Shown here one piece after another: positions 5,338 through 23,465 of a DNA stretch of 35,901 nucleotides (the stretch's first letter is position 1; each line of letters starts with the position of its first letter). Source of the stretch: an uncultured Lachnospiraceae bacterium (GTDB taxonomy: Bacteria; Bacillota; Clostridia; Lachnospirales; Lachnospiraceae); assembly GCA_947169935.1 (NCBI GenBank), contig CAMVRS010000017.1, forward strand, positions 1 to 35,901, read 5' to 3'. The notes beneath the pieces were generated by a model that had not been told where the DNA came from, searched no databases, and saw nothing but the letters and a program-made list of their open reading frames with translations. The position numbers and the translations under genes are program-made.

Positions 5338-6690
5338 TTATAGATATTTCTTCCATGCGCGTAAGCCAATAACAAGCGACAGGCAAAGCGCGGCTATGGA
5401 AGCTGCGGGTCTGCAGAAGACGAATCCGTCGATACCGAAGATACCCGGAAGGATCAGTACCGAAGGGATCAGGAACAGGCCGTTTTCCGATATCGTAACA
5501 AGAGTAGCCTCCCCGAACCTTCCGATATTCTGCAGAAACATCCCGCATAATATATAAAAGCCCATGAACGGAAGCACCATGCAATGCGCACGTATAAGCC
5601 TTACCGCCATGGCGATAACCTCCGCATCCTGTGTGAACTTTCTGCATAATGTTTCTCCGGCAATTATCAATACTATCACGGAAACAACCAGGAAAACACT
5701 TACCGTGATCAGCGCATACTTAAAAGCGGTTTTTATCCTGTCGTACTTCTTTGCCCCGTAATTGATGGCGCATACAGGCTGAAAGCCCTGTCCGAATCCT
5801 ATCACAAGGGCGTAGGCTATATATGAGATGCGCAGTGCTATTGTAAGGGCGGCTATGGCATAATTCCCGAAAACCGCAGCCGCATTATTAAGCATTACAG
5901 ATGAGATACTGCTGATCCCCTGTCTGCAGAAATTGGGCGCACCGCCTGTAAGTATCTCCTTTATATTTTCAACATTCAAAGATGCCTTCTTCAGATCTAT
6001 CCTGATGTTTCCATTCCTGAATGTTATCATAAACAGCACGATAACACCAGCGATCTGACCGATCATACTTGCAATGGCGGCTCCCGCCACATCCATCTTA
6101 AGCCAGAGGATGAATACAGGATCCAGCAGCATATTTAAAAGCATCCCGACCAACAATCCACTCATGCAGTCTTTTGCAGAGCCCGCAAGTCGCAGCTGGT
6201 TATACAGTACGTTTGATATGAGCATAAATGGAACCGTAATGATAGTTATGCGAAGATATCTTACCGTAGCATCATACAATTCCCCGCTGCCTGCACCTAA
6301 AAGTGACGCAAGAGGCCTGATAAGAAACAGGCCTGCAGCAAGGATCACAATACCGGTGAGGATCGCCATCATTACCCCTGTAGCCGCCATTCTTTCTGCC
6401 GACTGTGTATCTTTTTTACCCAGACATCTGGAGATGTAATTCCCGCTTCCGTATCCGAACCAGAAACCTATGGCCTGTATCACCGATACAAAAGAAAAGA
6501 CTATACCTACAGATGCGGTAAGATCTACGTTATCCAGCTTACCCACGAAATAAGTATCCGTCATTGAATAGACGGTGCTCACTATCATACCTATCATGGA
6601 AGGGACCGCCATCTTTACAAGCAGCGGATAGACAGGATCGTTGGTTAGTCTTTGGATTTTTTCTTCTCTTTTTTTCTCGTCGTTTGGCAT
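5338..6690 (-). CDS. MATE-family multidrug efflux transporter
   Basis: A 450-aa polytopic membrane protein with about 12 hydrophobic segments after a charged N-terminus (MPNDEKKREEKIQRL). The sequence is typical of the MATE/DinF-NorM group, including PVYPLLVKMAVPSMIGMIV at the start of the first repeat. The family exports cationic drugs and other small molecules by Na+ or H+ antiport. An AAAGGA element precedes the start. The gene overlaps the end of the TetR gene by 46 bases, and its stop codon sits inside the ribosome site of the phosphotransferase gene. The three are therefore very likely co-transcribed and translationally coupled. The context suggests export plus chemical inactivation of the same class of compound. 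The substrate is unknown. Confidence 0.92.
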   Translation of the reverse strand: MPNDEKKREEKIQRLTNDPVYPLLVKMAVPSMIGMIVSTVYSMTDTYFVGKLDNVDLTASVGIVFSFVSVIQAIGFWFGYGSGNYISRCLGKKDTQSAERMAATGVMMAILTGIVILAAGLFLIRPLASLLGAGSGELYDATVRYLRITIITVPFMLISNVLYNQLRLAGSAKDCMSGLLVGMLLNMLLDPVFILWLKMDVAGAAIASMIGQIAGVIVLFMITFRNGNIRIDLKKASLNVENIKEILTGGAPNFCRQGISSISSVMLNNAAAVFGNYAIAALTIALRISYIAYALVIGFGQGFQPVCAINYGAKKYDRIKTAFKYALITVSVFLVVSVIVLIIAGETLCRKFTQDAEVIAMAVRLIRAHCMVLPFMGFYILCGMFLQNIGRFGEATLVTISENGLFLIPSVLILPGIFGIDGFVFCRPAASIAALCLSLVIGLRAWKKYL

Positions 6691-7283
6691 TTGGGGGTTC
6701 CTTTAAAAAACTTGTCTGTCTCTGCTTCACAGAATACTTTATAAATCTCCTTAAAGTGCTTCTCATTTATAAGCTCAGAGTTTATAAAAAGTATTCCTGC
6801 GGCGCTGCCTACGCTTAAGAGCATATCTATATCGCAGTCAATCTCATATCCGTTCTCTTCCCAGTATGCTATCAGCTTTTTAAGAAATTCCCTGTATATC
6901 TTCCGGCTCTTACCTTTTCCGTTTTTCGAAAAATAATTTATCGTATCGCTTTCGCTGTTAACAAAAGCCTTATTCTGCTTAAGATGCATACCCTCTTTAT
7001 ACATCAGATCCACGATAAATCCCCGGGGATCCGCAAGCGTCTTTTCTTTTTCCGCAAGCATTGCATCCGTCTTCTCCCTCACCCTCAGAAGGAAAAGATC
7101 TTCTACAAATTCATCTTTATCTTTATAAAAAGTATAGAAACCGCCCTGGGCGATCCCTACCTCTGACGTGAGCTGTCTTATGGATATTTCCTTAATACCG
7201 TTCTTTGCCAAAAGCTTAAGGCCGGTCCTTCGCAGTTTTTCCTGTAATGCATCTCTCTCTTCTTTGGTAAATGCTTTTCCCAT
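6645..7283 (-). CDS. TetR-family transcriptional regulator
   Basis: A 212-aa protein with a TetR N-terminal helix-turn-helix: the region ISIRQLTSEVGIAQGGFYTF (about residues 33-52) is the classic recognition segment. It is followed by a divergent helical ligand domain. The start was chosen at ATG 7283 because AAGGG lies eight bases upstream. An in-frame ATG at 7325 lacks a ribosome site and would lie almost at the predicted transcription start. It is the first gene of the operon and is followed, with overlap, by the MATE pump. An 11-bp inverted repeat straddling its promoter is the likely self-binding site, so a ligand would be expected to relieve repression of pump and phosphotransferase together. 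Confidence 0.9.
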   Translation of the reverse strand: MGKAFTKEERDALQEKLRRTGLKLLAKNGIKEISIRQLTSEVGIAQGGFYTFYKDKDEFVEDLFLLRVREKTDAMLAEKEKTLADPRGFIVDLMYKEGMHLKQNKAFVNSESDTINYFSKNGKGKSRKIYREFLKKLIAYWEENGYEIDCDIDMLLSVGSAAGILFINSELINEKHFKEIYKVFCEAETDKFFKGTPKCQTTRKKEKKKSKD

Positions 7284-7329
7284 ATCGTAGCCCTTCAATG
7301 TTTTATTGAGGTTAGTTGTATGCAACTTT

Positions 7330-7369: not shown

Positions 7370-7407
7370 AAAAAGATCCTTCGGGCTAAACCGCGAAGGA
7401 TCTTTTT
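7370..7407 (-). terminator. Terminator of the iron operon
   Basis: Perfect 14-bp arms (7370-7383 and 7394-7407) end in a T-run on the minus strand, two bases past the P-type ATPase stop codon. The stem begins with AAAGATCCTTCG, the same 12 bases that open the dispersed palindromic repeat elsewhere in the window. Confidence 0.85.
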
Positions 7408-7409
7408 CT

Positions 7410-9491
7410 CTACATCCCCGGCATCAGGTCCGTAAGACTCTTAAGCCCCAGTGCTACCGTGGATCCGTTATGCAGCATCGCAGATGTGGCCGGCGGCATG
7501 ATGCCTGCTATACCCAGCGCTATCAGCGCCGTATTAAAACCTACTATAGTCCTGTAGTTAAACCTGATACGTTTCATCAAAAGCACAGCCAGTTCTCTCA
7601 ATATAACTATACTTTCCAGATCTCCGCCGCTTATGGTTATATCGGCTATCTGTCTTGCTATCTCTGCTCCTTCACTTATGGCAATGCCTGCATCCGCAGC
7701 AGAAAGAGCCGGTGAATCATTTATACCGTCACCTACCATTATCACATGGCGCCCGTCGGCTTTAGCCCTCTCGATGTATCCTGCCTTATCCTCCGGAAGC
7801 ACCTCCGCATAATACTCACTTATCCCGGCTGATGATGCTATGGCCGCTGCCGTACGTTCACTGTCACCGGTCATCATCACCACATGCTTAAAGCCCTGTT
7901 GCTTAAGCTTTTCAACAACAACAGCACTTTCCTGTCTCATAGGATCCTCTATCAGTATTACCGCGCAGAGCTTTCCGTCCTTTGCAAAATACAGATGCGA
8001 ACATTCTGCCGGCAGCTCATCAAAACGCTTTTGGTAATCTGCAGGTATCGTAACGCCTTCGTCTTCAAACACAAAATGATAACTGCCAATCACGGCTTTC
8101 TTATCATCTATATACGATGCTATCCCGTGAGCAACTATATATTCGGCTCTGGTGTGCATCTCATCATGCAGAAGGCCTTTTCCTGCCGCAGCATCCACTA
8201 CAGCCCTGGCTACGGAATGGGGGAAGTGTTCTTCAAGGCATGCAGCCTGCCGCAGCAGTTCATCCTCTATTTCATCGCAGAAGGAAACTACCTGTCTTAC
8301 GGTAGGTGCTGCTTTTGTAAGCGTCCCCGTCTTATCAAATACTATGGTATCCGCATCGGCTACAGCTTCTAAAAATCTTCCGCCCTTAACGGTGATGCCG
8401 TGATCTGACGCCTCTCTTATAGCCGAAAGAACGGACAGCGGCATGGCCATCTTAAGCGCACAGGAATAATCAACCATAAGCACCGATACCGCTTTTGTCA
8501 CATTACGGCTGAAAAGCCATGTGAGTCCCGATGCCAGAAATGTATATGGCACAAGCCTGTCTGCAAGTCTCTCCGCCTTACCTTCCAGTGAAGACTTAAG
8601 CTTCTCCGATTCTTCGATCATCTTAACGATCTTATCAAAGCGTCCGCAGCCTTCAGTCTGTGTCACACGTATCGTGATCTGGCCTTCTTCAACCACCGTG
8701 CCGGCAAATACCACAGAACCGTTATCCTTTCGAACAGCAGAGGATTCTCCGGTCATGGAAGCCTGATTGACCATAGCCTCGCCGTCACATACTTCGCCGT
8801 CGAAGGGGATCATATTTCCCATCTGCACAACCACTTTATCACCGCAGACTATCTTTGATGAATCGGTAAGCACTTCACCTGTATCGGTTGCCAGCCACAC
8901 TTTATCGACATTTAAAGACATCCTTCGGGCCAGGTCATCAACAGTGCGTTTATGTGTCCATTCTTCAAGAGTATCGCCTATGCCCAGCAGGAACATAACG
9001 CTGGATGCGGTTTTATAATCTCCTGTAACCAGCGCGGCTGTGATGGCTACAGCATCAAGCAGCTCAACTCTTATCTTACCTTCCTTCAGGGATTTAAGCC
9101 CGCGGAGTATGTACTTTATGGCTTTGATCCGCTCCCAGATCCTTCGTATCGATAAAGGAAGTATCAGACGCTTTGCATAATGAAGTACGATATCCGTGAT
9201 TATCTTTTCCCTGTACATAGCCGAAAGCTCACGTCCGGAACTTTCGGCAATCCTGTCCGGAACTACAGCATCATCAAAAGAAAAGGCTTTAAGTATTTCC
9301 AGCGCACGTCCTCTTTCACAGTCATATATCACAGCCACATCCGCAGTGCGCTCGTATATGCATACTTCTTTTATCTCCGCAAAGCCCTGTAAATAGTGAT
9401 CAAGGGTATCAGCTTCCGCGAATGACATACGCTTCATCGGAAGATGTACCCTTAACCTGGATCTTATCTCGTGCTTTATCTGTATTTTCAT
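7410..9491 (-). CDS. P1B-type metal ATPase, FezB-like (P1B-6) candidate
   Basis: A 693-aa P-type ATPase. It has the actuator motif TGES near residue 246, the phosphorylated D386 in DKTGTLT, HFPHS in the nucleotide domain, and GDGINDSPAL near residue 585. The N-terminus has no CxxC metal domain but an Arg-rich segment, HEIRSRLRVHLP (H7, R10, R12, R14). The metal-pathway helix reads YSCALKMAMP (C344, P351) in place of CPC or SPC. From memory, these traits fit the P1B-6 group, whose member FezB loads iron into ferrosome organelles; a Mn or Zn exporter is the alternative. Its start abuts the stop of the DUF6110-like gene (TAAATG), and it is the last gene of the feo operon. Ferrous iron as cargo is inferred from this context. 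Confidence 0.85.
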   Translation of the reverse strand: MKIQIKHEIRSRLRVHLPMKRMSFAEADTLDHYLQGFAEIKEVCIYERTADVAVIYDCERGRALEILKAFSFDDAVVPDRIAESSGRELSAMYREKIITDIVLHYAKRLILPLSIRRIWERIKAIKYILRGLKSLKEGKIRVELLDAVAITAALVTGDYKTASSVMFLLGIGDTLEEWTHKRTVDDLARRMSLNVDKVWLATDTGEVLTDSSKIVCGDKVVVQMGNMIPFDGEVCDGEAMVNQASMTGESSAVRKDNGSVVFAGTVVEEGQITIRVTQTEGCGRFDKIVKMIEESEKLKSSLEGKAERLADRLVPYTFLASGLTWLFSRNVTKAVSVLMVDYSCALKMAMPLSVLSAIREASDHGITVKGGRFLEAVADADTIVFDKTGTLTKAAPTVRQVVSFCDEIEDELLRQAACLEEHFPHSVARAVVDAAAGKGLLHDEMHTRAEYIVAHGIASYIDDKKAVIGSYHFVFEDEGVTIPADYQKRFDELPAECSHLYFAKDGKLCAVILIEDPMRQESAVVVEKLKQQGFKHVVMMTGDSERTAAAIASSAGISEYYAEVLPEDKAGYIERAKADGRHVIMVGDGINDSPALSAADAGIAISEGAEIARQIADITISGGDLESIVILRELAVLLMKRIRFNYRTIVGFNTALIALGIAGIMPPATSAMLHNGSTVALGLKSLTDLMPGM

Positions 9492-9746
9492 TTACGCCTC
9501 TTCTTCAGTCTCTTTTTCAGACTCCGCTGCGGCTCTGTCCTCGTTTATCTGCTTTGCTTCAGCATAGATATCAGAACAGTTTTCTCTTAACACGCTGACC
9601 TGATCCAGCACAGCATCCTTTGCCCTTAAAACTCCTGCTGTAGCATGGGTATAAAGTTTCTTGGCATCTTTGGATGCAAGCAGTTTTATGCCCTCCAGTC
9701 CGAACAATGCTCCCAGTGCAAATAATCCTAATCCTTTAAGTTTCAT
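9492..9746 (-). CDS. Small membrane protein, DUF6110-like, FezA-like candidate
   Basis: An 84-aa protein with a Gly-rich N-terminal membrane helix (KGLGLFALGALFG), then an amphipathic stretch and a charged Glu-rich tail. I recognise the pattern as the DUF6110 type (hydrophobic helix, then SKDAKKLYTHATAG), with moderate certainty. The start is ATG 9746, seven bases after AGGAGG. An ATG at 9752 is only one base from the SD and is rejected. The gene is directly coupled to the P1B ATPase. In ferrosome loci a small membrane protein of this kind accompanies FezB, so a structural or partner role is inferred. It could equally be an uncharacterised ATPase accessory subunit. Confidence 0.7.
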   Translation of the reverse strand: MKLKGLGLFALGALFGLEGIKLLASKDAKKLYTHATAGVLRAKDAVLDQVSVLRENCSDIYAEAKQINEDRAAAESEKETEEEA

Positions 9747-9781
9747 GTACATACCTCCTTAATATTTAATGCCCCGGATTT

Positions 9782-10159
9782 TTATCCGGGCAGCATTTTC
9801 TTCTCATAGTATCTGTTCAGGCACTCATAAGTCTCATCGCTTATAGCGTGCTCTATCTCGCAGGCCTCTTCATCGGCCGTCTTTTTACTTACTCCTATAC
9901 GCCTCAAAAATTTAGCGATCAGCGAATGTTTGCTGTAGACCTTTTCGGCAAAGATCTTTCCCGTCTCTGTAAAACAGATACAGTCATTCTCACCGAAATA
10001 GATCATTTCCTGCTTTCGCAGTTTTTTCATTGCATTACAGACACTGGGTCTGCTGACACCCATTTCTTCCGCCACTTCGGAAGACCTTACTGATCCGTTC
10101 CTTCTGTGGAGTATAAGGATGCTCTTCATGTAATCTTCTGCAGAAGCACTTTTCTTCAT
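9782..10159 (-). CDS. DtxR/MntR-family metal-dependent regulator (operon copy)
   Basis: A 125-aa protein with an N-terminal winged helix (EVAEEMGVSRPSVCNAMKKL) and a dimerisation/metal domain carrying the EACEIEHAIS signature. In this family the Cys, Glu and His of that motif bind Fe2+ or Mn2+. There is no C-terminal SH3-like domain, so it is the short MntR-type. The start is ATG 10159, with AGAGG eight bases upstream; a longer in-frame start at 10201 overlaps the HMA gene and lacks a ribosome site. It sits inside the feo operon between the HMA protein and the DUF6110-like gene. It is a paralogue of the divergent regulator at 13315, and either could bind the TTAGCT boxes upstream of feoA. Confidence 0.88.
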   Translation of the reverse strand: MKKSASAEDYMKSILILHRRNGSVRSSEVAEEMGVSRPSVCNAMKKLRKQEMIYFGENDCICFTETGKIFAEKVYSKHSLIAKFLRRIGVSKKTADEEACEIEHAISDETYECLNRYYEKKMLPG

Positions 10160-10184
10160 CAGGTAAACCTCTAAGAACACAGTA

Positions 10185-10556
10185 TTATTCGATCGAAACA
10201 ACCGTATAACCCAGATCCGTTATCACTTCACGTATCTTCTCATCATCTATCTGCCTGCCAAGTTTAAGCCTGGCAATATCCCTGCTGCGTATCACCTTTG
10301 CATTTATCCCGTCTATGGAATTAAGCGCATTATGTATCCTGCCGGCGCAGCGGTCACAGGTCATGCCTTCAATATGGACCGTTTTTTCCGACAGGACAGT
10401 ATCCAGTTTCCGCGGCTTGATAAGTTTTAACTTACCGCCTCCGCCGCCGCAGCAGGCTCCTTCGCCTTTAAAATGCGGTATCGAATACTTAACCGCCAGG
10501 AACAATATGACAGCTATGACAATGATTATCACGCAATTAGACGTAAACTGATCCAT
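10185..10556 (-). CDS. Membrane-anchored heavy-metal-associated (HMA) domain protein
   Basis: A 123-aa protein with one N-terminal membrane helix (about residues 8-25), a Cys/Gly-rich linker (ACCGGGGG, 34-41), then a complete HMA ferredoxin-like fold. The fold has GMTCDRC with C67 and C70 and ends near the C-terminus. Such domains carry soft metals as chaperones or as separated N-terminal domains of P1B ATPases. Here the ATPase of the same operon lacks its own CxxC domain, so this protein may serve it in trans. That is an inference. An AAAGGAAA element precedes the start. Ferrosome loci often include an HMA protein, which strengthens that reading of the operon. Confidence 0.85.
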   Translation of the reverse strand: MDQFTSNCVIIIVIAVILFLAVKYSIPHFKGEGACCGGGGGKLKLIKPRKLDTVLSEKTVHIEGMTCDRCAGRIHNALNSIDGINAKVIRSRDIARLKLGRQIDDEKIREVITDLGYTVVSIE

Positions 10557-10566
10557 ATGCTTTCCT

Positions 10567-10758
10567 TTAATCTGATATATCCGTATTCATGACCGTCTTA
10601 CTTTTCTTCGCCGCACACTGTGCCGCTTTTGCCTTGGCGCACGCCCCTGCCATAGGGCAGCCAATGCAGTGACTGCCCTTTTTCTTTTCTTTATATATAT
10701 AGGCGCATGCAGCAGAAAATAAGAGTATTATTACAATTGCTGCGATGATGTTTACCAT
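10567..10758 (-). CDS. FeoB-associated Cys-rich membrane protein
   Basis: A 63-aa protein: one N-terminal membrane helix, a Lys-rich stretch (KEKKKG), then a Cys-rich segment C31-x2-C34-x5-C40-x7-C48. This is the usual layout of the FeoB-associated Cys-rich family, which is encoded next to feoB in many Firmicutes and thought to assist ferrous iron uptake. The start was chosen at ATG 10758, nine bases after GAGG; ATG 10764 is too close to the SD. It follows feoB after a 51-base gap that contains a dispersed palindromic repeat. Confidence 0.85.
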   Translation of the reverse strand: MVNIIAAIVIILLFSAACAYIYKEKKKGSHCIGCPMAGACAKAKAAQCAAKKSKTVMNTDISD

Positions 10759-10772
10759 GTACATTTACCTCA

Positions 10773-10803
10773 TTAAAGATCCTTCGCTTCGCTCAGGATG
10801 ACA
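10773..10803. repeat. Dispersed palindromic repeat, copy 1
   Basis: A 31-bp element beginning TTAAAGATCCTTCGC and ending GCTCAGGATGACA. It is identical over 31 bases to the copy at 13190-13220. It can form an imperfect hairpin (ATCCT..GC / GC..AGGAT). It lies seven bases past the feoB stop, in the gap before the Cys-rich gene, so on the transcript it is an intercistronic hairpin. Confidence 0.85.
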
Positions 10804-10809
10804 GAGCCG

Positions 10810-12807
10810 TTAATTTGCTTTTAATCTATACTCCGCAACCATCTTCTTGTTATTAGTAATAATGATAGCTGTGATCACTGCTGCAAATGCAAGCACTGCG
10901 ATGAGGCCGCCTGCAAAGCCTGCACCAAAGCTGCCTGTAGTGAACAGAGTACCGAACTGATATACCAGGAAGCCTACGGTAAAGCCTGTAGCTAACTGAA
11001 GACCTATCGCACCCCACAGCCACTTGGCTGATTTCATCTCGGAATTCATTGCACCCAGAGCTGCAAAGCAGGGAGGCGTATAAAGATTGAACATAAGATA
11101 TGCAAGCGCTGCAACCTTTGTGATACCGATAACTGCTGCAACCGTAGTTCCTTCGCCTACAAGCTCAAGCTCTTCGGGATCTACCAGATTGGTGATCGCA
11201 TATACGGTAGCGATAGTACCAACCACATTCTCCTTTGCGATAAATCCGGTGATAGCTGCTGCCGCAAGCTGCCATGCTGCCACACCTACGATGGGTACAA
11301 GCAGTACTGAGAACGGACCTGCTATCGAAGCAAGAATTGATGTATCCTCCATGCCTTCCTCAACCTCTTCGAAGCTCCAGTTGAAGGCCTGCATGATCTG
11401 TACTATGGTGTTGCAGACAAGGATAACGGTTCCGGCCTTAACGATATAAGCTTTACCGCGCTCCAGCATGGACTTAAGAGCAAAGAGAAGACTGGGTACC
11501 TTGTATTCGGGAAGCTCGATGATAAAGAAGCTCTTTCTGTATTTCATACCGGTAATGGCTTTGATAAGCAGAGCTCCAAGAAGAACCAGCACGATACCAA
11601 GTACATAGCACACAAAGCTTACCCAGGTAGCTTCAGGGAAGAATGCACCTGCAAACAATGCTATAACGGGAAGCTTCGCACCGCAGGGCATGAAGGTTGC
11701 CAGCATTGCCGTTGCTCTTCTTTCTCTTTCATTACGGATGGTACGGCAGGCCATAATTGCAGGGATACCGCAGCCTGTACCGATTACCATGGGGATAACG
11801 GATTTACCGGAAAGACCCACACGCTTAAAGATGGGATCCAGTACTACAGTCGCACGTGACATATATCCGCAATCCTCAAGCAGAGCAATAAGGAAGTACA
11901 TTACCATTACCAGAGGCAGGAATCCCACAACGGCACCTACGCCTCCGATGATACCGTCTACCAGCAGCGCATATAACAAGGGATTTGCATCTGCCATCTG
12001 ATCGCCTACCCAGCCCTGGAAGGCCTCGATACCGCCTGCCAGAAGATCTGCAACCCAGGTACCTACAGTAGTCTGGGAAATGTAGAATACAAGGAACATG
12101 ATACCTGCAAAGATAGGGATACCCAGTATCGGGTGGGTGATGAACTTATCAATGGTATCGCCAAAATTCTTATCCTTTGTGAAAGTCTTACGGACTTCAA
12201 CCTCTTTTACTATATTATTAACAAACTCAAAACGTCTTCTGTCGGAATTTTCCACAGCCTTTTTATCCAGAAGATCCACATCACCTTCATCAAAAGGCGC
12301 TGCCTGCTTTGCTCCTTTAAGCCCTGCTGCCGTACTTACTACGGAAGAAAGGCCCTTGCCTTCGGTAGATACGGTCTCTATAACCGGACAGCCCAGCTTC
12401 TCCGAAAGCATCTTAACATCGATCTTATTACCCTTTTTACCGTTTACATCACTTTTGTTAAGTGCAACTACCACAGGGATTCCCAGCTCCAGCAGCTGTG
12501 TAGTAAAGAAAAGGCTGCGGCTTAAGTTGCTGGCATCTACGATATTTATGATGGCGTCGGGATGCTCATTCTTTACATAAGCACTGGTAATGCTCTCCTC
12601 AGATGTGAAAGGAGACATTGAATAAGCTCCCGGCAGATCTACTGCGATCAGCTCATTTCCGCTTTCATTGTAGTTCTTTTTGATCGGACTTTCCTTCCTG
12701 TCCACCGTAACGCCGGCCCAGTTACCGATCTTTTCGTTCCTGCCCGTCAGCGCATTGTACATCGTGGTTTTTCCGCTGTTCGGGTTTCCTGCTAGTGCAA
12801 TCCTCAT
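10810..12807 (-). CDS. feoB: Ferrous iron transporter FeoB
   Basis: A 665-aa protein. The N-terminal G domain carries G1 GNPNSGKTT (residues 7-15), the G2 region GNWAGVTVD, G3 DLPG and G4 NKSD. After a helical spacer come the two Gate/nucleoside-recognition membrane modules, with hydrophobic segments from about residue 225 to the end and a cytoplasmic ELPEYKVPS segment between them. Its length is normal for the family. It imports Fe2+ across the cytoplasmic membrane, mainly under anoxic conditions. It follows feoA by 17 bases. The operon continues into metal-handling and ATPase genes, so uptake and downstream storage or export appear to be co-expressed. Confidence 0.97.
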   Translation of the reverse strand: MRIALAGNPNSGKTTMYNALTGRNEKIGNWAGVTVDRKESPIKKNYNESGNELIAVDLPGAYSMSPFTSEESITSAYVKNEHPDAIINIVDASNLSRSLFFTTQLLELGIPVVVALNKSDVNGKKGNKIDVKMLSEKLGCPVIETVSTEGKGLSSVVSTAAGLKGAKQAAPFDEGDVDLLDKKAVENSDRRRFEFVNNIVKEVEVRKTFTKDKNFGDTIDKFITHPILGIPIFAGIMFLVFYISQTTVGTWVADLLAGGIEAFQGWVGDQMADANPLLYALLVDGIIGGVGAVVGFLPLVMVMYFLIALLEDCGYMSRATVVLDPIFKRVGLSGKSVIPMVIGTGCGIPAIMACRTIRNERERRATAMLATFMPCGAKLPVIALFAGAFFPEATWVSFVCYVLGIVLVLLGALLIKAITGMKYRKSFFIIELPEYKVPSLLFALKSMLERGKAYIVKAGTVILVCNTIVQIMQAFNWSFEEVEEGMEDTSILASIAGPFSVLLVPIVGVAAWQLAAAAITGFIAKENVVGTIATVYAITNLVDPEELELVGEGTTVAAVIGITKVAALAYLMFNLYTPPCFAALGAMNSEMKSAKWLWGAIGLQLATGFTVGFLVYQFGTLFTTGSFGAGFAGGLIAVLAFAAVITAIIITNNKKMVAEYRLKAN

Positions 12808-12824
12808 TTTTCTCTTTCCCTCCC

Positions 12825-13037
12825 TTAAATATGAATAGCGGCCCCTAATTCAGGGTCGATATTGTACCTGGCATCCTTTATCGATACGACAAGATTTTTC
12901 TTCTTATCCACTACCGTTATCTTCTCCCCGCTGTAACAACCCAGCGAAAAAAGAAAACTTTCCATCTCTTCATCACCATCGGTATCTACTCCGGTAATGA
13001 CATATTCTTTTCCAAGTTCTGCTGCATTAAGATCCAT
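12825..13037 (-). CDS. feoA: FeoA-domain protein
   Basis: A 70-aa single-domain protein with the SH3-like FeoA fold pattern: an N-terminal LNAAELGKEYVITGV strand region, the central LFSLGCYSGEKITVV segment, and a C-terminal DARYNIDPELGAAIHI. FeoA is a cytoplasmic partner of FeoB, needed for full Fe2+ uptake. It is the first gene of the operon. GGAGG lies about 12 bases before the ATG, a rather long spacing, and a second GAGG lies too close. The promoter and three TTAGCT-type boxes lie just upstream. Confidence 0.93.
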   Translation of the reverse strand: MDLNAAELGKEYVITGVDTDGDEEMESFLFSLGCYSGEKITVVDKKKNLVVSIKDARYNIDPELGAAIHI

Positions 13038-13065: not shown

Positions 13066-13079
13066 TTAGCTTTAGCTAA
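13066..13079. promoter_or_regulatory. Iron-regulator box 1 (feo leader)
   Basis: The 14-bp perfect palindrome TTAGCTTTAGCTAA followed by C. It resembles the half-site spacing of DtxR/IdeR-type boxes. It lies about 70 bases downstream of the predicted transcription start, inside the feoA leader. Confidence 0.65.
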
Positions 13080-13129: not shown

Positions 13130-13143
13130 TTAGCTTTAGCTAA
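13130..13143. promoter_or_regulatory. Iron-regulator box 2 (at the feo transcription start)
   Basis: A second exact copy of TTAGCTTTAGCTAA, also followed by C. It lies immediately downstream of the predicted start of transcription. Confidence 0.7.
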
Positions 13144-13152
13144 CTATAAAGG

Positions 13153-13181
13153 AGTATAATTAGCCAGAGCTAACTTGTCAA
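13153..13181 (-). promoter_or_regulatory. feoA operon promoter
   Basis: On the minus strand TTGACA (13181..13176), a 17-base spacer and TATACT (13158..13153) form a near-consensus sigma-A promoter. Box 3 fills most of the spacer. The predicted start near 13146 gives a leader of about 110 bases before feoA. Confidence 0.75.
13160..13173. promoter_or_regulatory. Iron-regulator box 3 (inside the feo core promoter)
   Basis: TTAGCCAGAGCTAA followed by C: a variant of the other two boxes with one half-site mismatch. It is positioned exactly between the -35 and -10 elements, where a bound repressor would exclude RNA polymerase. Confidence 0.65.
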
Positions 13182-13189
13182 GCACTTTT

Positions 13190-13220
13190 TTAAAGATCCT
13201 TCGCTTCGCTCAGGATGACA
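13190..13220. repeat. Dispersed palindromic repeat, copy 2
   Basis: The same 31 bases as the copy at 10773-10803 in the same orientation. It lies in the divergent intergenic region between the feo promoter and the plus-strand DtxR gene. Confidence 0.85.
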
Positions 13221-13314: not shown

Positions 13315-13689
13315 ATGGCACTTCAGGAATCAGGAGAAATGTATCTTGAGACTATATATGTTCTTTCACTTGAATCATCGACAGTACGCGCAATAGACAT
13401 AGGAGAATATATGGGCTTTTCAAAGCCGTCTGTAAGCCGTGCGCTGGGGCTTTTGAAAGATGAAGGCCTGATCAAAAAAGATAAAAACAGTTATATCACG
13501 CTTACCAAGGCCGGTGAGATACTGGCGAAGCGCATCTATGAACGCCATACTGTTTTATCCGGGCTGTTTATGAAACTCGGCGTAGATGAGAAAACCGCCA
13601 CAGAAGACGCCTGCCGCATCGAACATTATATCAGCGATACAACCTTCGATGCGATCAAGGCTCATATGAAGAAACACCAGAAGGGATGA
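13315..13689 (+). CDS. DtxR/MntR-family metal-dependent regulator (divergent copy)
   Basis: The only confident plus-strand gene in the window. It is a 124-aa protein with a winged helix (DIGEYMGFSKPSVSRALGLL, about residues 26-45) and the metal/dimer motif DACRIEHYIS. Like its paralogue in the feo operon it stops before any SH3-like domain. GGAGG lies ten bases before the ATG. It is transcribed away from feoA, and the shared intergenic region holds three TTAGCT-type boxes. A role as the Fe2+- (or Mn2+-) dependent repressor of the feo operon is therefore likely but inferred. Its stop codon is three bases from the stop of the convergent GH-like gene. Confidence 0.9.
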   Translation: MALQESGEMYLETIYVLSLESSTVRAIDIGEYMGFSKPSVSRALGLLKDEGLIKKDKNSYITLTKAGEILAKRIYERHTVLSGLFMKLGVDEKTATEDACRIEHYISDTTFDAIKAHMKKHQKG

Positions 13690-13692
13690 TCC

Positions 13693-15438
13693 TTATCCCT
13701 CAGCTTCTTTCCATTTATATATCCTGAAATTACCGGGCATCAGTAATACTTCTGCTTCATAACCCTTTACCAGCCTGAAACCTTCAAAACGTACTGTTTC
13801 CCTTGCGGGTATTTCATGCCCTGAAAGCACATCAACAATGGCCGATACTTTCTTTGGCGTATGGAACATTACCTTTACTGGATGGTTGTTCGGCTTTACA
13901 TAACGGTAAAGTATCATGCTGCCGTCGTCATAAGTAAAGTTTGAAAAATCTTTCCCTGTTATATATTCACCGCCGCAGAGAACTCTCTTTATCACATCTG
14001 CTGCTGCCGCAGGCATGCGGTACAGGTCGGCATTATTATCGGGAACAGCCATGGTAAAAAGCCTTCCCTTACCGTAAGTACTTCGTATGAACAGACTTGA
14101 ATGATAGTCCCCGTCTCCGCCGTTCAAATACGACCAGGACTCGTTATTACCGTGACGGATCTCCGGGAAGAATACCTTATCCATATGCTCTATGATACCT
14201 GCTCTGTCACCGGTAACCTGATAGCGGGTAACTCCAATGCTCTTTCCGCTCAAGCCCACTTCGGTAAGTCCGGCCTTGTGCAGCTCTTCCTCTGCTCCTC
14301 TTAAGAAGCCCGTAGTGATCACGGCTTCTCCGCCCTTCATTACAAAATCACTTAATTTTGAAACTACATCCGGATCTGCCAGTGAGCTCTCTGTCAGCAG
14401 TATACGCTCTGAGTTTTCGGGGAAGAAAGGCGTGGGATCCATGGGTACGCCCATCATTCCCAGCCTCATCTCCAGATGGTTCTCCCCATCGGAAGCAAAA
14501 GGTATATAAACGGGTATGCCACAGGGCGATCCCACTTTATCCATCATCCCGTCGATCTTTTTAAGCTGTATGCCCATGGCCCCTACAAAAGGATTATCGA
14601 TCAGATCGTTCCACATAAAATGCATCATTTCCTTACCGCCCGCAAAGGCCGTAAGATATGCCTGTTCCAGATATCTGTCGATGGACCAGCAGTCGTAACT
14701 GTCAAACCAGCCGCCGCCGTTCCTGCCGGGCCACGCGTTATCCATATAACGCATCAGTGAATAGCTTAAATATTCAGGCAGATGCTGGTCGGTATAGGCA
14801 GGGCTTCTGGTCTCGGTACCGGTATATGTAGCATCAAAGATATCCCTCTGCACTTCCGGAACGTATCCGGTATAATGATAGGATTCACGCCAGTTGGGAT
14901 ATTTGATCACAACCTTTATATCGGGATTTACGGCCTTCATGGGCTCTACCACAAGCTCCTTGGATACTCCCCTCATCAGCTCGCGGCGGAAATCCACCCA
15001 GCTTCTGTCTCCCTTTTCTTTTATACAGCGCTCACAGGTGCAGTTGGTAAAATAGAAATCATCCAGGATGATCTCCGGGAAAAACTGCGCTGCATACGCC
15101 GATATTTCCTTAAGACGCTCACGCATAGCTGGATCCGTATAGCAGAAAGTGCCGAAAAGCCTCTGTTTTCCCGGCTCTGCCCCTTCAAAATCATTGACTA
15201 TCGTGGTGATGCCGCCGGATACCTCAACTCCTTTTTCCTCAAAAAAGGACTTGATCATATTTATCTGACCCGCCTCTACGTCACATTCGGAGCGGTGCGT
15301 CTCAAGATAAACCTTATCCAGTCCTATATATTTTTCCAGAAAAGCATAGTCGTTGTTTAGTTTTTCTGCTGTAAAGCCGGCCGCTACCTGTGCCGGAATA
15401 TATACAACTGTTTTAAAATGATCGAAATGTTTTCCCAT
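13693..15438 (-). CDS. Glycoside-hydrolase-like protein of unknown activity
   Basis: A 581-aa protein with no signal peptide. I do not recognise a named family. Residues about 10-330 read like a (beta/alpha)8 barrel, with EIILDDFYF (D126, D127) followed by a Cys triad C133, C135, C138 that may bind metal. Residues about 340-440 resemble the glutamine-amidotransferase-like domain of beta-galactosidase-type enzymes (LADPDVVSKLSDFVMKGGEA). A small beta-rich C-terminal domain follows. This order recalls GH42-type and related sugar enzymes, but the catalytic acids cannot be assigned. The start is supported by AAGGAG seven bases upstream. It has its own probable promoter and is convergent with the DtxR gene. 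Confidence 0.7.
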   Translation of the reverse strand: MGKHFDHFKTVVYIPAQVAAGFTAEKLNNDYAFLEKYIGLDKVYLETHRSECDVEAGQINMIKSFFEEKGVEVSGGITTIVNDFEGAEPGKQRLFGTFCYTDPAMRERLKEISAYAAQFFPEIILDDFYFTNCTCERCIKEKGDRSWVDFRRELMRGVSKELVVEPMKAVNPDIKVVIKYPNWRESYHYTGYVPEVQRDIFDATYTGTETRSPAYTDQHLPEYLSYSLMRYMDNAWPGRNGGGWFDSYDCWSIDRYLEQAYLTAFAGGKEMMHFMWNDLIDNPFVGAMGIQLKKIDGMMDKVGSPCGIPVYIPFASDGENHLEMRLGMMGVPMDPTPFFPENSERILLTESSLADPDVVSKLSDFVMKGGEAVITTGFLRGAEEELHKAGLTEVGLSGKSIGVTRYQVTGDRAGIIEHMDKVFFPEIRHGNNESWSYLNGGDGDYHSSLFIRSTYGKGRLFTMAVPDNNADLYRMPAAAADVIKRVLCGGEYITGKDFSNFTYDDGSMILYRYVKPNNHPVKVMFHTPKKVSAIVDVLSGHEIPARETVRFEGFRLVKGYEAEVLLMPGNFRIYKWKEAEG

Positions 15439-23411: not shown

Positions 23412-23465
23412 AAAGATCCTTCGCTGCGCTCAGGATGACAGGGGAGTGCGCTCAGGATGACAGGG
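23412..23465. repeat. Dispersed palindromic repeat, copy 3, with partial tandem copy
   Basis: 23412-23440 matches the 31-bp repeat with one mismatch. A 19-base part, TGCGCTCAGGATGACAGGG, occurs twice, at 23425-23443 and 23447-23465. The second, partial copy overlaps the 3' end of the GH74-like gene and forms its last codons and stop. Confidence 0.8.

What the first reader, a model, noticed from the sequence alone, without database searches (positions are those of the whole stretch)
7410..13037. Feo iron-import operon fused to a ferrosome-like (fez) gene set
One uninterrupted seven-gene transcript runs feoA, feoB, FeoB-associated Cys-rich peptide, HMA membrane protein, DtxR regulator, small membrane protein and P1B ATPase. 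Seen: tight spacing, one strong promoter, one terminator. Known: ferrosome loci (Desulfovibrio, C. difficile) encode a P1B-6 ATPase FezB with small membrane and HMA partners that make membrane-bound iron stores. Inferred: importer and organelle-loading pump are co-expressed, which would explain why an uptake system shares a transcript with a P-type ATPase that would otherwise export what it imports. I have not seen this exact arrangement described.
Basis: partly seen in the sequence, partly recalled or inferred. Interest (0 to 1): 0.85.

Follow-up and report, generated by a model that had tools for sequence, protein, structure and literature searches.

The report
Iron importer joined to iron-storage pump
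A bacterium, probably from the gut or rumen, appears to make its iron importer from the same seven-gene set as a pump closely related to the one that Clostridioides difficile uses to store iron in tiny membrane sacs, and the same pairing recurs in many related bacteria.

Summary
Seven minus-strand genes (13037-7410) run with gaps of 0-45 bp from a good promoter carrying three TTAGn6CTAA palindromes to a strong terminator: feoA, feoB, a Cys-rich peptide, a membrane HMA protein, a DtxR-type regulator, a DUF6110 protein and a P1B ATPase. The last two are a FezA/FezB-type pair. Each of three C. difficile genomes holds one such pair (ATPase 53% identical to the window's), which I equate with fezAB (CD630_05910-05920). 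A tree puts these ATPases in one fully supported clade apart from Cu and Zn/Cd exporters. DUF6110 lies beside the ATPase in 76 of 78 testable family loci. The ATPase occurs in 160 of 397 genomes of the window's family (inferred: Lachnospiraceae). FeoB lies within 6 kb in 21 of 80 of those loci, all on the same strand, with several FeoB types and orders. The divergent DtxR has iron-type ligands, and no ferritin was found in the 95%-complete genome. Best reading: a ferrosome-type storage pump co-expressed with Feo. Storage and the single transcript are inferred. The HMA protein is not shown to be a ferrosome part. The two primary ferrosome papers could not be read, so priority is unproven.

The parts
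13153..13181 (-). promoter TTGACA-17-TATACT; the same layout, with an operator between -35 and -10, is seen in congeners L023 and L024
13160..13173 (.). operator 1 TTAGCTCTGGCTAA, in the promoter spacer
13130..13143 (.). operator 2 TTAGCTAAAGCTAA, 30 bp from operator 1, just after the -10
13066..13079 (.). operator 3 TTAGCTAAAGCTAA in the leader; the 30 and 64 bp spacings recur in congener L305
13097..13117 (-). terminator-like hairpin in the leader (possible attenuator)
12825..13037 (-). feoA (70 aa)
   Evidence: PF04023
10810..12807 (-). feoB (665 aa), ferrous iron importer
   Evidence: TIGR00437 over cut-off
10567..10764 (-). Cys-rich single-TM peptide (65 aa), FeoB_associated-like
   Evidence: (below cut-off)
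10185..10556 (-). TM-anchored HMA protein (123 aa) with MTCDRC motif
9782..10159 (-). DtxR-type regulator (125 aa) with a mixed metal ligand set (Asp, Lys, Cys, Glu, His)
9492..9746 (-). FezA-type DUF6110 membrane protein (84 aa; 86 aa if started at 9752)
7410..9491 (-). FezB-type P1B6 ATPase (693 aa): SCALK at 343, DKTGT at 386, EEHFPHS at 420, HN at 674
7370..7407 (-). intrinsic terminator of the operon
13315..13689 (+). divergent DtxR-type regulator (124 aa) with iron-type ligand set M9, C100, E103, H104; candidate for binding the operators

Best explanation
The last two genes encode a FezA/FezB-type (ferrosome-type) iron-storage pump, appended to a complete feo operon so that Fe(II) import and internal Fe(II) sequestration are switched on together. 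Shown here by sequence: one same-strand run of seven genes; the ATPase is P1B6-type and lies in one clade with the C. difficile FezB orthologue; its partner is of the same DUF6110 family; DtxR-type palindromes lie on the promoter; feo-fez linkage recurs. Inferred: an iron-loaded DtxR-type repressor, most likely the divergent one, leaves the promoter when iron is low; FeoB then brings Fe(II) into the cytoplasm, the Cys-rich and HMA membrane proteins may buffer or hand on metal, and FezB with FezA moves Fe(II) into a membrane-bound store. Placing the pump on internal membranes would remove the paradox of co-expressing an importer with an exporter.
For: Each of three C. difficile genomes has one ATPase of this type (1058-1065 bits; next best ATPase 356 or less), 53% identical to the window's, with a DUF6110 protein (51-52%) directly upstream. 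PMC11651100 (passage) names fezAB as CD630_05910-05920; PMC6311696 Table 1 (passages) lists these as 'ATPase' and 'hypothetical protein', up in low iron (log2 2.4 and 2.0 RNA, 6.8 and 5.2 protein) and in a fur mutant (2.8 and 1.9; 7.5 and 5.6), with a Fur box for 05920. The tree joins 29 DUF6110-type ATPases at 100/100 apart from 12 others, including E. coli CopA and ZntA. C344, H674, N675 are invariant in 50 of 50 sequences, fitting the HN motif that PMC9374683 gives for P1B6 ATPases, with which DUF6110 is typically encoded. FeoB lies within 6 kb in 21 of 80 family loci, all same strand. TTAGn6CTAA upstream of feoA 18 of 23, of unlinked fez 25 of 117, of controls 15 of 225. Neighbours in the family sample: Fur 24, flavodoxin 15, DUF3793 15 of 80. 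No PF00210 ferritin in the genome; all 14 controls have one.
Against: Organelle, metal and direction of transport are unshown. The equation of the C. difficile pair with CD630_05910-05920 rests on gene order and uniqueness; no sequence of those locus tags was fetched. FezC-like DUF4405 was not found in this genome, although fezXAB/fezAB, the C. difficile set named in the passages seen, does not include it. Most fez loci (59 of 80) have no FeoB within 6 kb, so the link is optional; among named loci 13 of 15 nearby FeoB and among other loci 5 of 6 are on the same strand. Of 117 unlinked fez promoters, 81 have neither a TTAGn6CTAA palindrome nor a Fur-box match with at most two mismatches. The genome is 95.4% complete, so ferritin could lie in a gap. 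The ATPase passes a cadmium subfamily model (TIGR01512).
Confidence: 0.75

Rival explanations
1. The FezAB-like pair works as a plasma-membrane Fe(II) exporter, a safety valve that prevents overload when starved cells with abundant FeoB suddenly meet iron.
For: P1B ATPases are described as metal efflux pumps (PMC9374683 passage); co-expression with an importer also suits a valve; ferrosome work on C. difficile was seen only through citing papers.
Against: The clade contains the C. difficile FezB orthologue, reported as required for ferrosome formation (PMC12574912 passage). Promoter layout and the iron-type DtxR predict expression at low iron, when export is least needed. No ferritin was found that would otherwise store the iron.
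Confidence: 0.13
2. DUF6110-ATPase is a PacL/CtpC-like metal efflux platform for Zn or Mn, and its place behind feo reflects general divalent-metal homeostasis.
For: PMC9374683 relates DUF6110 to DUF1490 (PacL) and suggests membrane platform assembly; the best NCBIfam regulator models are MntR, below cut-off; a ZIP transporter lies near 6 of 80 family loci.
Against: CtpC has CPC in TM4, these ATPases have SCA in at least 90%. The divergent regulator has the Met/Cys iron-type ligands. Recurrent neighbours are Fur, FeoB and flavodoxin. The C. difficile orthologues respond to iron and Fur.
Confidence: 0.07
3. The feo-fez join is incidental: a read-through neighbour with no functional coupling.
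For: Within the genus the join is not fixed: 15 of 20 fetched feo regions show no pump, some of them cut short by contig ends; on the tree the linkage label is almost as scattered as shuffled labels (25 changes; shuffled mean 28.3, range 21-34).
Against: FeoB lies within 6 kb in 21 of 80 family loci, all on the same strand, with several FeoB types and orders; with 75 FeoB over cut-off in 40 genomes (my count of the rows) chance would give about 0.5-1% (my estimate). Unlinked fez genes carry the same class of operator more often than controls.
Confidence: 0.05

Closest known systems
C. difficile ferrosome genes fezAB (fezXAB), CD630_05910-05920
   Same: Same DUF6110 small membrane protein followed by the same P1B6 ATPase type (53% identity, one clade); an iron-sensing repressor is predicted here and Fur is reported there
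   Different: In C. difficile no FeoA or FeoB was annotated in the 17 kb of L301 and control is by Fur; here the pair ends a feo operon with DtxR-type operators
Desulfovibrio / Desulfurispirillum ferrosome clusters with FezC, a DUF4405-like cytochrome (PMC10979944, passages)
   Same: Putative ferrous iron transporter FezB
   Different: No DUF4405 match in the window's genome; the FezB proteins of these organisms were not compared here
Feo operons with Cys-rich peptide, HMA protein and DtxR regulator
   Same: First five genes or parts of them
   Different: A storage-type pump pair is appended
PacL1-CtpC zinc efflux platform of M. tuberculosis (PMC9374683, passages)
   Same: Small one-TM partner encoded just before a P1B ATPase with an HN motif
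   Different: CtpC has CPC in TM4 and is proposed to export zinc; here SCA, and an iron-gene setting

Membership tests
Ferrosome (Fez) system | FezB: P1B6 ATPase orthologous to a characterised FezB | tested here: met
   One clade (100/100) with the C. difficile ATPase equated with CD630_05910; 53% identity; the equation with the tag is by gene order and uniqueness
Ferrosome (Fez) system | FezA: small membrane protein encoded beside FezB | tested here: met
   DUF6110 in window and C. difficile; one predicted TM helix in the window protein
Ferrosome (Fez) system | Membrane-bound iron granules that depend on these genes | not testable with these tools
   Needs electron microscopy and a mutant
Ferrosome (Fez) system | Repression by iron through an iron sensor | tested here: inconclusive
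   DtxR-type palindromes on the promoter and an iron-type divergent regulator; response not measured
Ferrosome (Fez) system | FezC cytochrome (described for Desulfovibrio and Desulfurispirillum) | tested here: not met
   No PF14358 match in the genome; the C. difficile set named in the passages seen is fezXAB or fezAB, so this is not a general requirement
P1B6 ATPase | HN motif in TM6 | tested here: met
   H674 and N675 invariant in 50 of 50 sequences; definition from PMC9374683
P1B6 ATPase | No CPC in TM4 | tested here: met
   SCALK at 343; C344 invariant, S343 and A345 at least 90%
Cu or Zn/Cd exporting P1B ATPases | Place in the CopA or ZntA clade | tested here: not met
   Of the ten outgroup rows whose motif was printed, nine have ACPC or SCPC; L046 has YACG. 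Against this: TIGR01512 (cadmium) passes its cut-off
PacL/CtpC efflux platform | DUF1490 partner and CPC ATPase | tested here: not met
   Partner matches DUF6110; DUF1490 was not among its Pfam matches; no CPC
Feo operon | feoA and feoB together | tested here: met

The most novel reading that the evidence does not exclude
In much of the window's family (inferred: Lachnospiraceae) the ferrosome replaces ferritin as the main iron store, and feo-fez operons form a vectorial module in which membrane-anchored Cys-rich and HMA proteins pass Fe(II) from FeoB straight to FezB, so that newly imported iron goes into internal vesicles without filling the free cytoplasmic pool.
Probability: 0.2. Interest if true: 0.85.

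Novelty: new variant of a known kind. Interest (0 to 1): 0.62.

Why it matters
[quoted passage not shown] Here a ferrosome-type pump occurs in 160 of 397 sampled genomes of a family that I infer to be Lachnospiraceae, and in a share of them it is wired into a ferrous iron import operon. If confirmed, storage and uptake are co-expressed by design, many gut commensals may bank iron in organelles, and congeners with and without the join offer a direct natural comparison.

Tried and rejected
Grant 2022 and Pi 2023 are not held; their content is taken only from citing papers. A Cd/Zn identity from NCBIfam TIGR01512 was rejected by the tree; that tree warns that E. coli ZntA is a long branch and that long branches meet within the outgroup. 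CD1484/CD1485 as C. difficile fez tags (my recollection) was wrong: CD1485 is a flavodoxin gene. The leader hairpin as a conserved attenuator was dropped: I saw no such hairpin on reading the L023 and L024 leaders (not folded). No Rfam match at gathering scores. The 25 changes of the feo label cannot tell gain from loss; 39 'feo' tips include short named loci while the 47 'no' tips needed long flanks, so the label is unevenly sampled. In one search promoters with under 120 bases held were dropped (feoA 24 to 23, fez 124 to 117), and another pattern, CTAAn6TTAG, was also commoner before feoA (6) and fez (4) than in controls (0). The 80 family loci come from the better-scoring listed part of 160, not a random draw; three of them repeat named loci. 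Fur, flavodoxin and DUF3793 neighbour counts have no control. Hydropathy gave only weak TM calls for the ATPase.
Full report
What is in the window. Pfam places them as FeoA, FeoB, a FeoB_associated-like Cys-rich peptide (below cut-off), an HMA protein with a predicted TM helix, a DtxR-type regulator, DUF6110 and a P-type ATPase. The promoter TTGACA-17-TATACT at 13181-13153 is the best of the region. The terminator after the ATPase folds at -22 kcal/mol, z -5.8; the consensus scan did not list it. A hairpin without a T run covers the dtxR stop codon.

Where it comes from. The window is one whole contig of an unnamed 4.21 Mb genome in 306 contigs, 95.4% complete. G012, of the same genus, holds an 8374-base contig whose ATPase is that of L134, named Lachnospiraceae bacterium Tb.RUG.144, also 8374 bases. 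I infer that the window's family is Lachnospiraceae.

What the pump is. The ATPase passes the general heavy-metal model TIGR01525 and a cadmium model, TIGR01512, but it has SCALK instead of CPC before the DKTGT site. A short subfamily stretch (AACLEEHFPHS and its surroundings, alignment A2) separates its family sharply: of 398 genomes sampled across the phylum, 8 match at E below 1e-38 and the next match is 5e-14. A scan of named genomes for that motif, biased to AT-rich codons, found 94 stretches (80 listed), among them three C. difficile genomes, many Lachnospiraceae, Peptoniphilus, Anaerococcus and methanogenic archaea. Each of the three C. difficile genomes has one such ATPase, the next best ATPase scoring a third as much; it is 53% identical to the window's and has a DUF6110 protein directly upstream in all three. 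PMC11651100 (passage) names fezAB as CD630_05910-05920. PMC6311696, Table 1 (passages), lists these two genes as 'ATPase' and 'hypothetical protein', more abundant in low iron and in a fur mutant in RNA and protein, with a Fur box for 05920. By gene order and uniqueness I take the C. difficile pair here to be fezAB. [quoted passage not shown]

Tree. In a maximum-likelihood tree of 41 ATPases, the 29 of this type (window, C. difficile and others) form one side of a branch with 100/100 support; the other 12 include E. coli CopA and ZntA, the other heavy-metal ATPase of the same genome and C. difficile CPC ATPases. The program warns of a long ZntA branch and of long branches meeting inside the outgroup. 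No authentic Mn exporter was included. [quoted passage not shown] HN (674-675) and C344 are invariant in all 50 sequences of alignment A3.

The pair is constant, the feo link is variable. In the family, 160 of 397 genomes have the ATPase. I fetched neighbourhoods for 80 of these 160. DUF6110 lies beside the ATPase in 76 of the 78 family loci with at least 700 bp upstream; for the named loci it is 61 of 63 and for the other loci 14 of 14. FeoB lies within 6 kb in 21 of 80 family loci, all on the same strand (17 of the 62 with full flanks), and 13 of 80 are in an uninterrupted same-strand run with FeoB; among named loci 15 of 91 have FeoB within 6 kb (13 same strand; stretches are at most 8 kb), among other loci 6 of 14 (5 same strand). 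With 75 FeoB over cut-off in 40 of these genomes (my count of the rows), chance would give about 0.5-1% by my estimate. The linked FeoB proteins fall into identity classes to the window's FeoB of 67-100%, 37-45% and 25-33%, and lie upstream or downstream. On a tree of 166 ATPases the link changes at least 25 times over 86 labelled tips, against a mean of 28.3 (21-34) for shuffled labels: it looks often made and lost, in unknown proportion.

Within the genus. Of 35 genomes, 17 have the pump, in 19 places. I looked at 13 of the 19: in 9 the pump is in the run behind the window-type FeoB (window, L023, L024, L026, L305, L308, L309, L318, L319), in L020 and L025 another FeoB type precedes it, in L022 a FeoB lies seven genes upstream, and L021 shows none. 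L305 has the window's order without the Cys-rich peptide and the same operator spacings (30 and 64 bp). Conversely 15 of 20 fetched feo regions of the genus show no pump in the stretch held, some cut short by contig ends. Three of these (L312, L316, L320) still carry the HMA protein. Directly before DUF6110 an HMA protein was found in 6 of 77 family and 1 of 72 named loci, with FeoB nearby in 5 of these 7. So the HMA protein goes mostly with feo, but L126 and L246 leave a fez role open.

Regulation. The TTAGn6CTAA palindrome occurs upstream of feoA in 18 of 23 cases, upstream of fez genes that start their own unit in 25 of 117, and upstream of 15 of 225 control genes from the same loci; Fur-box matches with at most two mismatches occur in 5, 13 and 5 (Fisher p 2e-14 and 1e-4 for the palindrome). 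Thus 81 of 117 unlinked fez promoters show neither. The promoter layout with an operator between -35 and -10 and another 30 bp on is repeated in L023 and L024. The divergent DtxR has Met9, Cys100, Glu103 and His104, aligned through MntR chains to the site that PMC4805248 and PMC10317159 (passages) describe as iron-type (Met10 and Cys102, with Glu105 and His106, in DtxR), unlike Asp8 and Glu99 in Mn-sensing MntR. The operon's own DtxR has a mixed set. Which of them binds the operators is not shown.

Iron setting. Within 6 kb of the pump in the family sample there is a Fur-type regulator in 24, a flavodoxin in 15, DUF3793 in 15, and at least one iron-associated gene in 44 of 80 loci (no control for these counts). 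The window's genome has no match to the ferritin family PF00210, while all 14 control genomes do, so a ferrosome could be its store; an incomplete assembly or another kind of store remains possible.

Judgement. That this is a FezAB-type pair joined to feo is well supported by sequence. That it stores iron in organelles is inferred from the C. difficile orthologue. In the library searched, the only listed paper that holds both 'feoB' and 'ferrosome' was PMC12004955, whose ferrosome passages do not treat such an operon; among the 10 of 40 papers listed no other holds 'ferrosome'. The two primary ferrosome papers were not readable, so priority cannot be claimed.

Noticed in passing
window 10778-10802, 13195-13219, 23415-23439: Three copies (one with a mismatch) of a 25-bp repeat GATCCTTCGCTTCGCTCAGGATGAC, none in shuffles; one lies between feoB and the Cys-rich peptide gene.
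   Followed up: partly
window 9755-9800 (-): Stable hairpin (-15.9 kcal/mol, z -3.8) without a T run over the dtxR stop codon, at the feo-fez junction.
   Followed up: partly
L079, L100, L121, L125, L127, L141, L143, L145: Methanosphaera, Methanobrevibacter and other Methanobacteriaceae carry the same ATPase at 42-45% identity, with a DUF6110-type protein called beside it in 7 of these 8 (not L125).
   Followed up: partly
L247, L248, L282 and other family loci: A Fur-type regulator, DUF3793 and flavodoxin genes recur near the pump; DUF3793 is a family of unknown function.
   Followed up: partly
window 5338-7325 (-); L308: TetR and MatE genes follow the operon here and also lie downstream of the pump in congener L308, 71% and 78% identical.
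   Followed up: no
window 13693-15438 (-): 581-aa protein without any Pfam match at E 0.001.
   Followed up: no
G000 whole genome: No ferritin-family (PF00210) match in a 95.4% complete genome.
   Followed up: no
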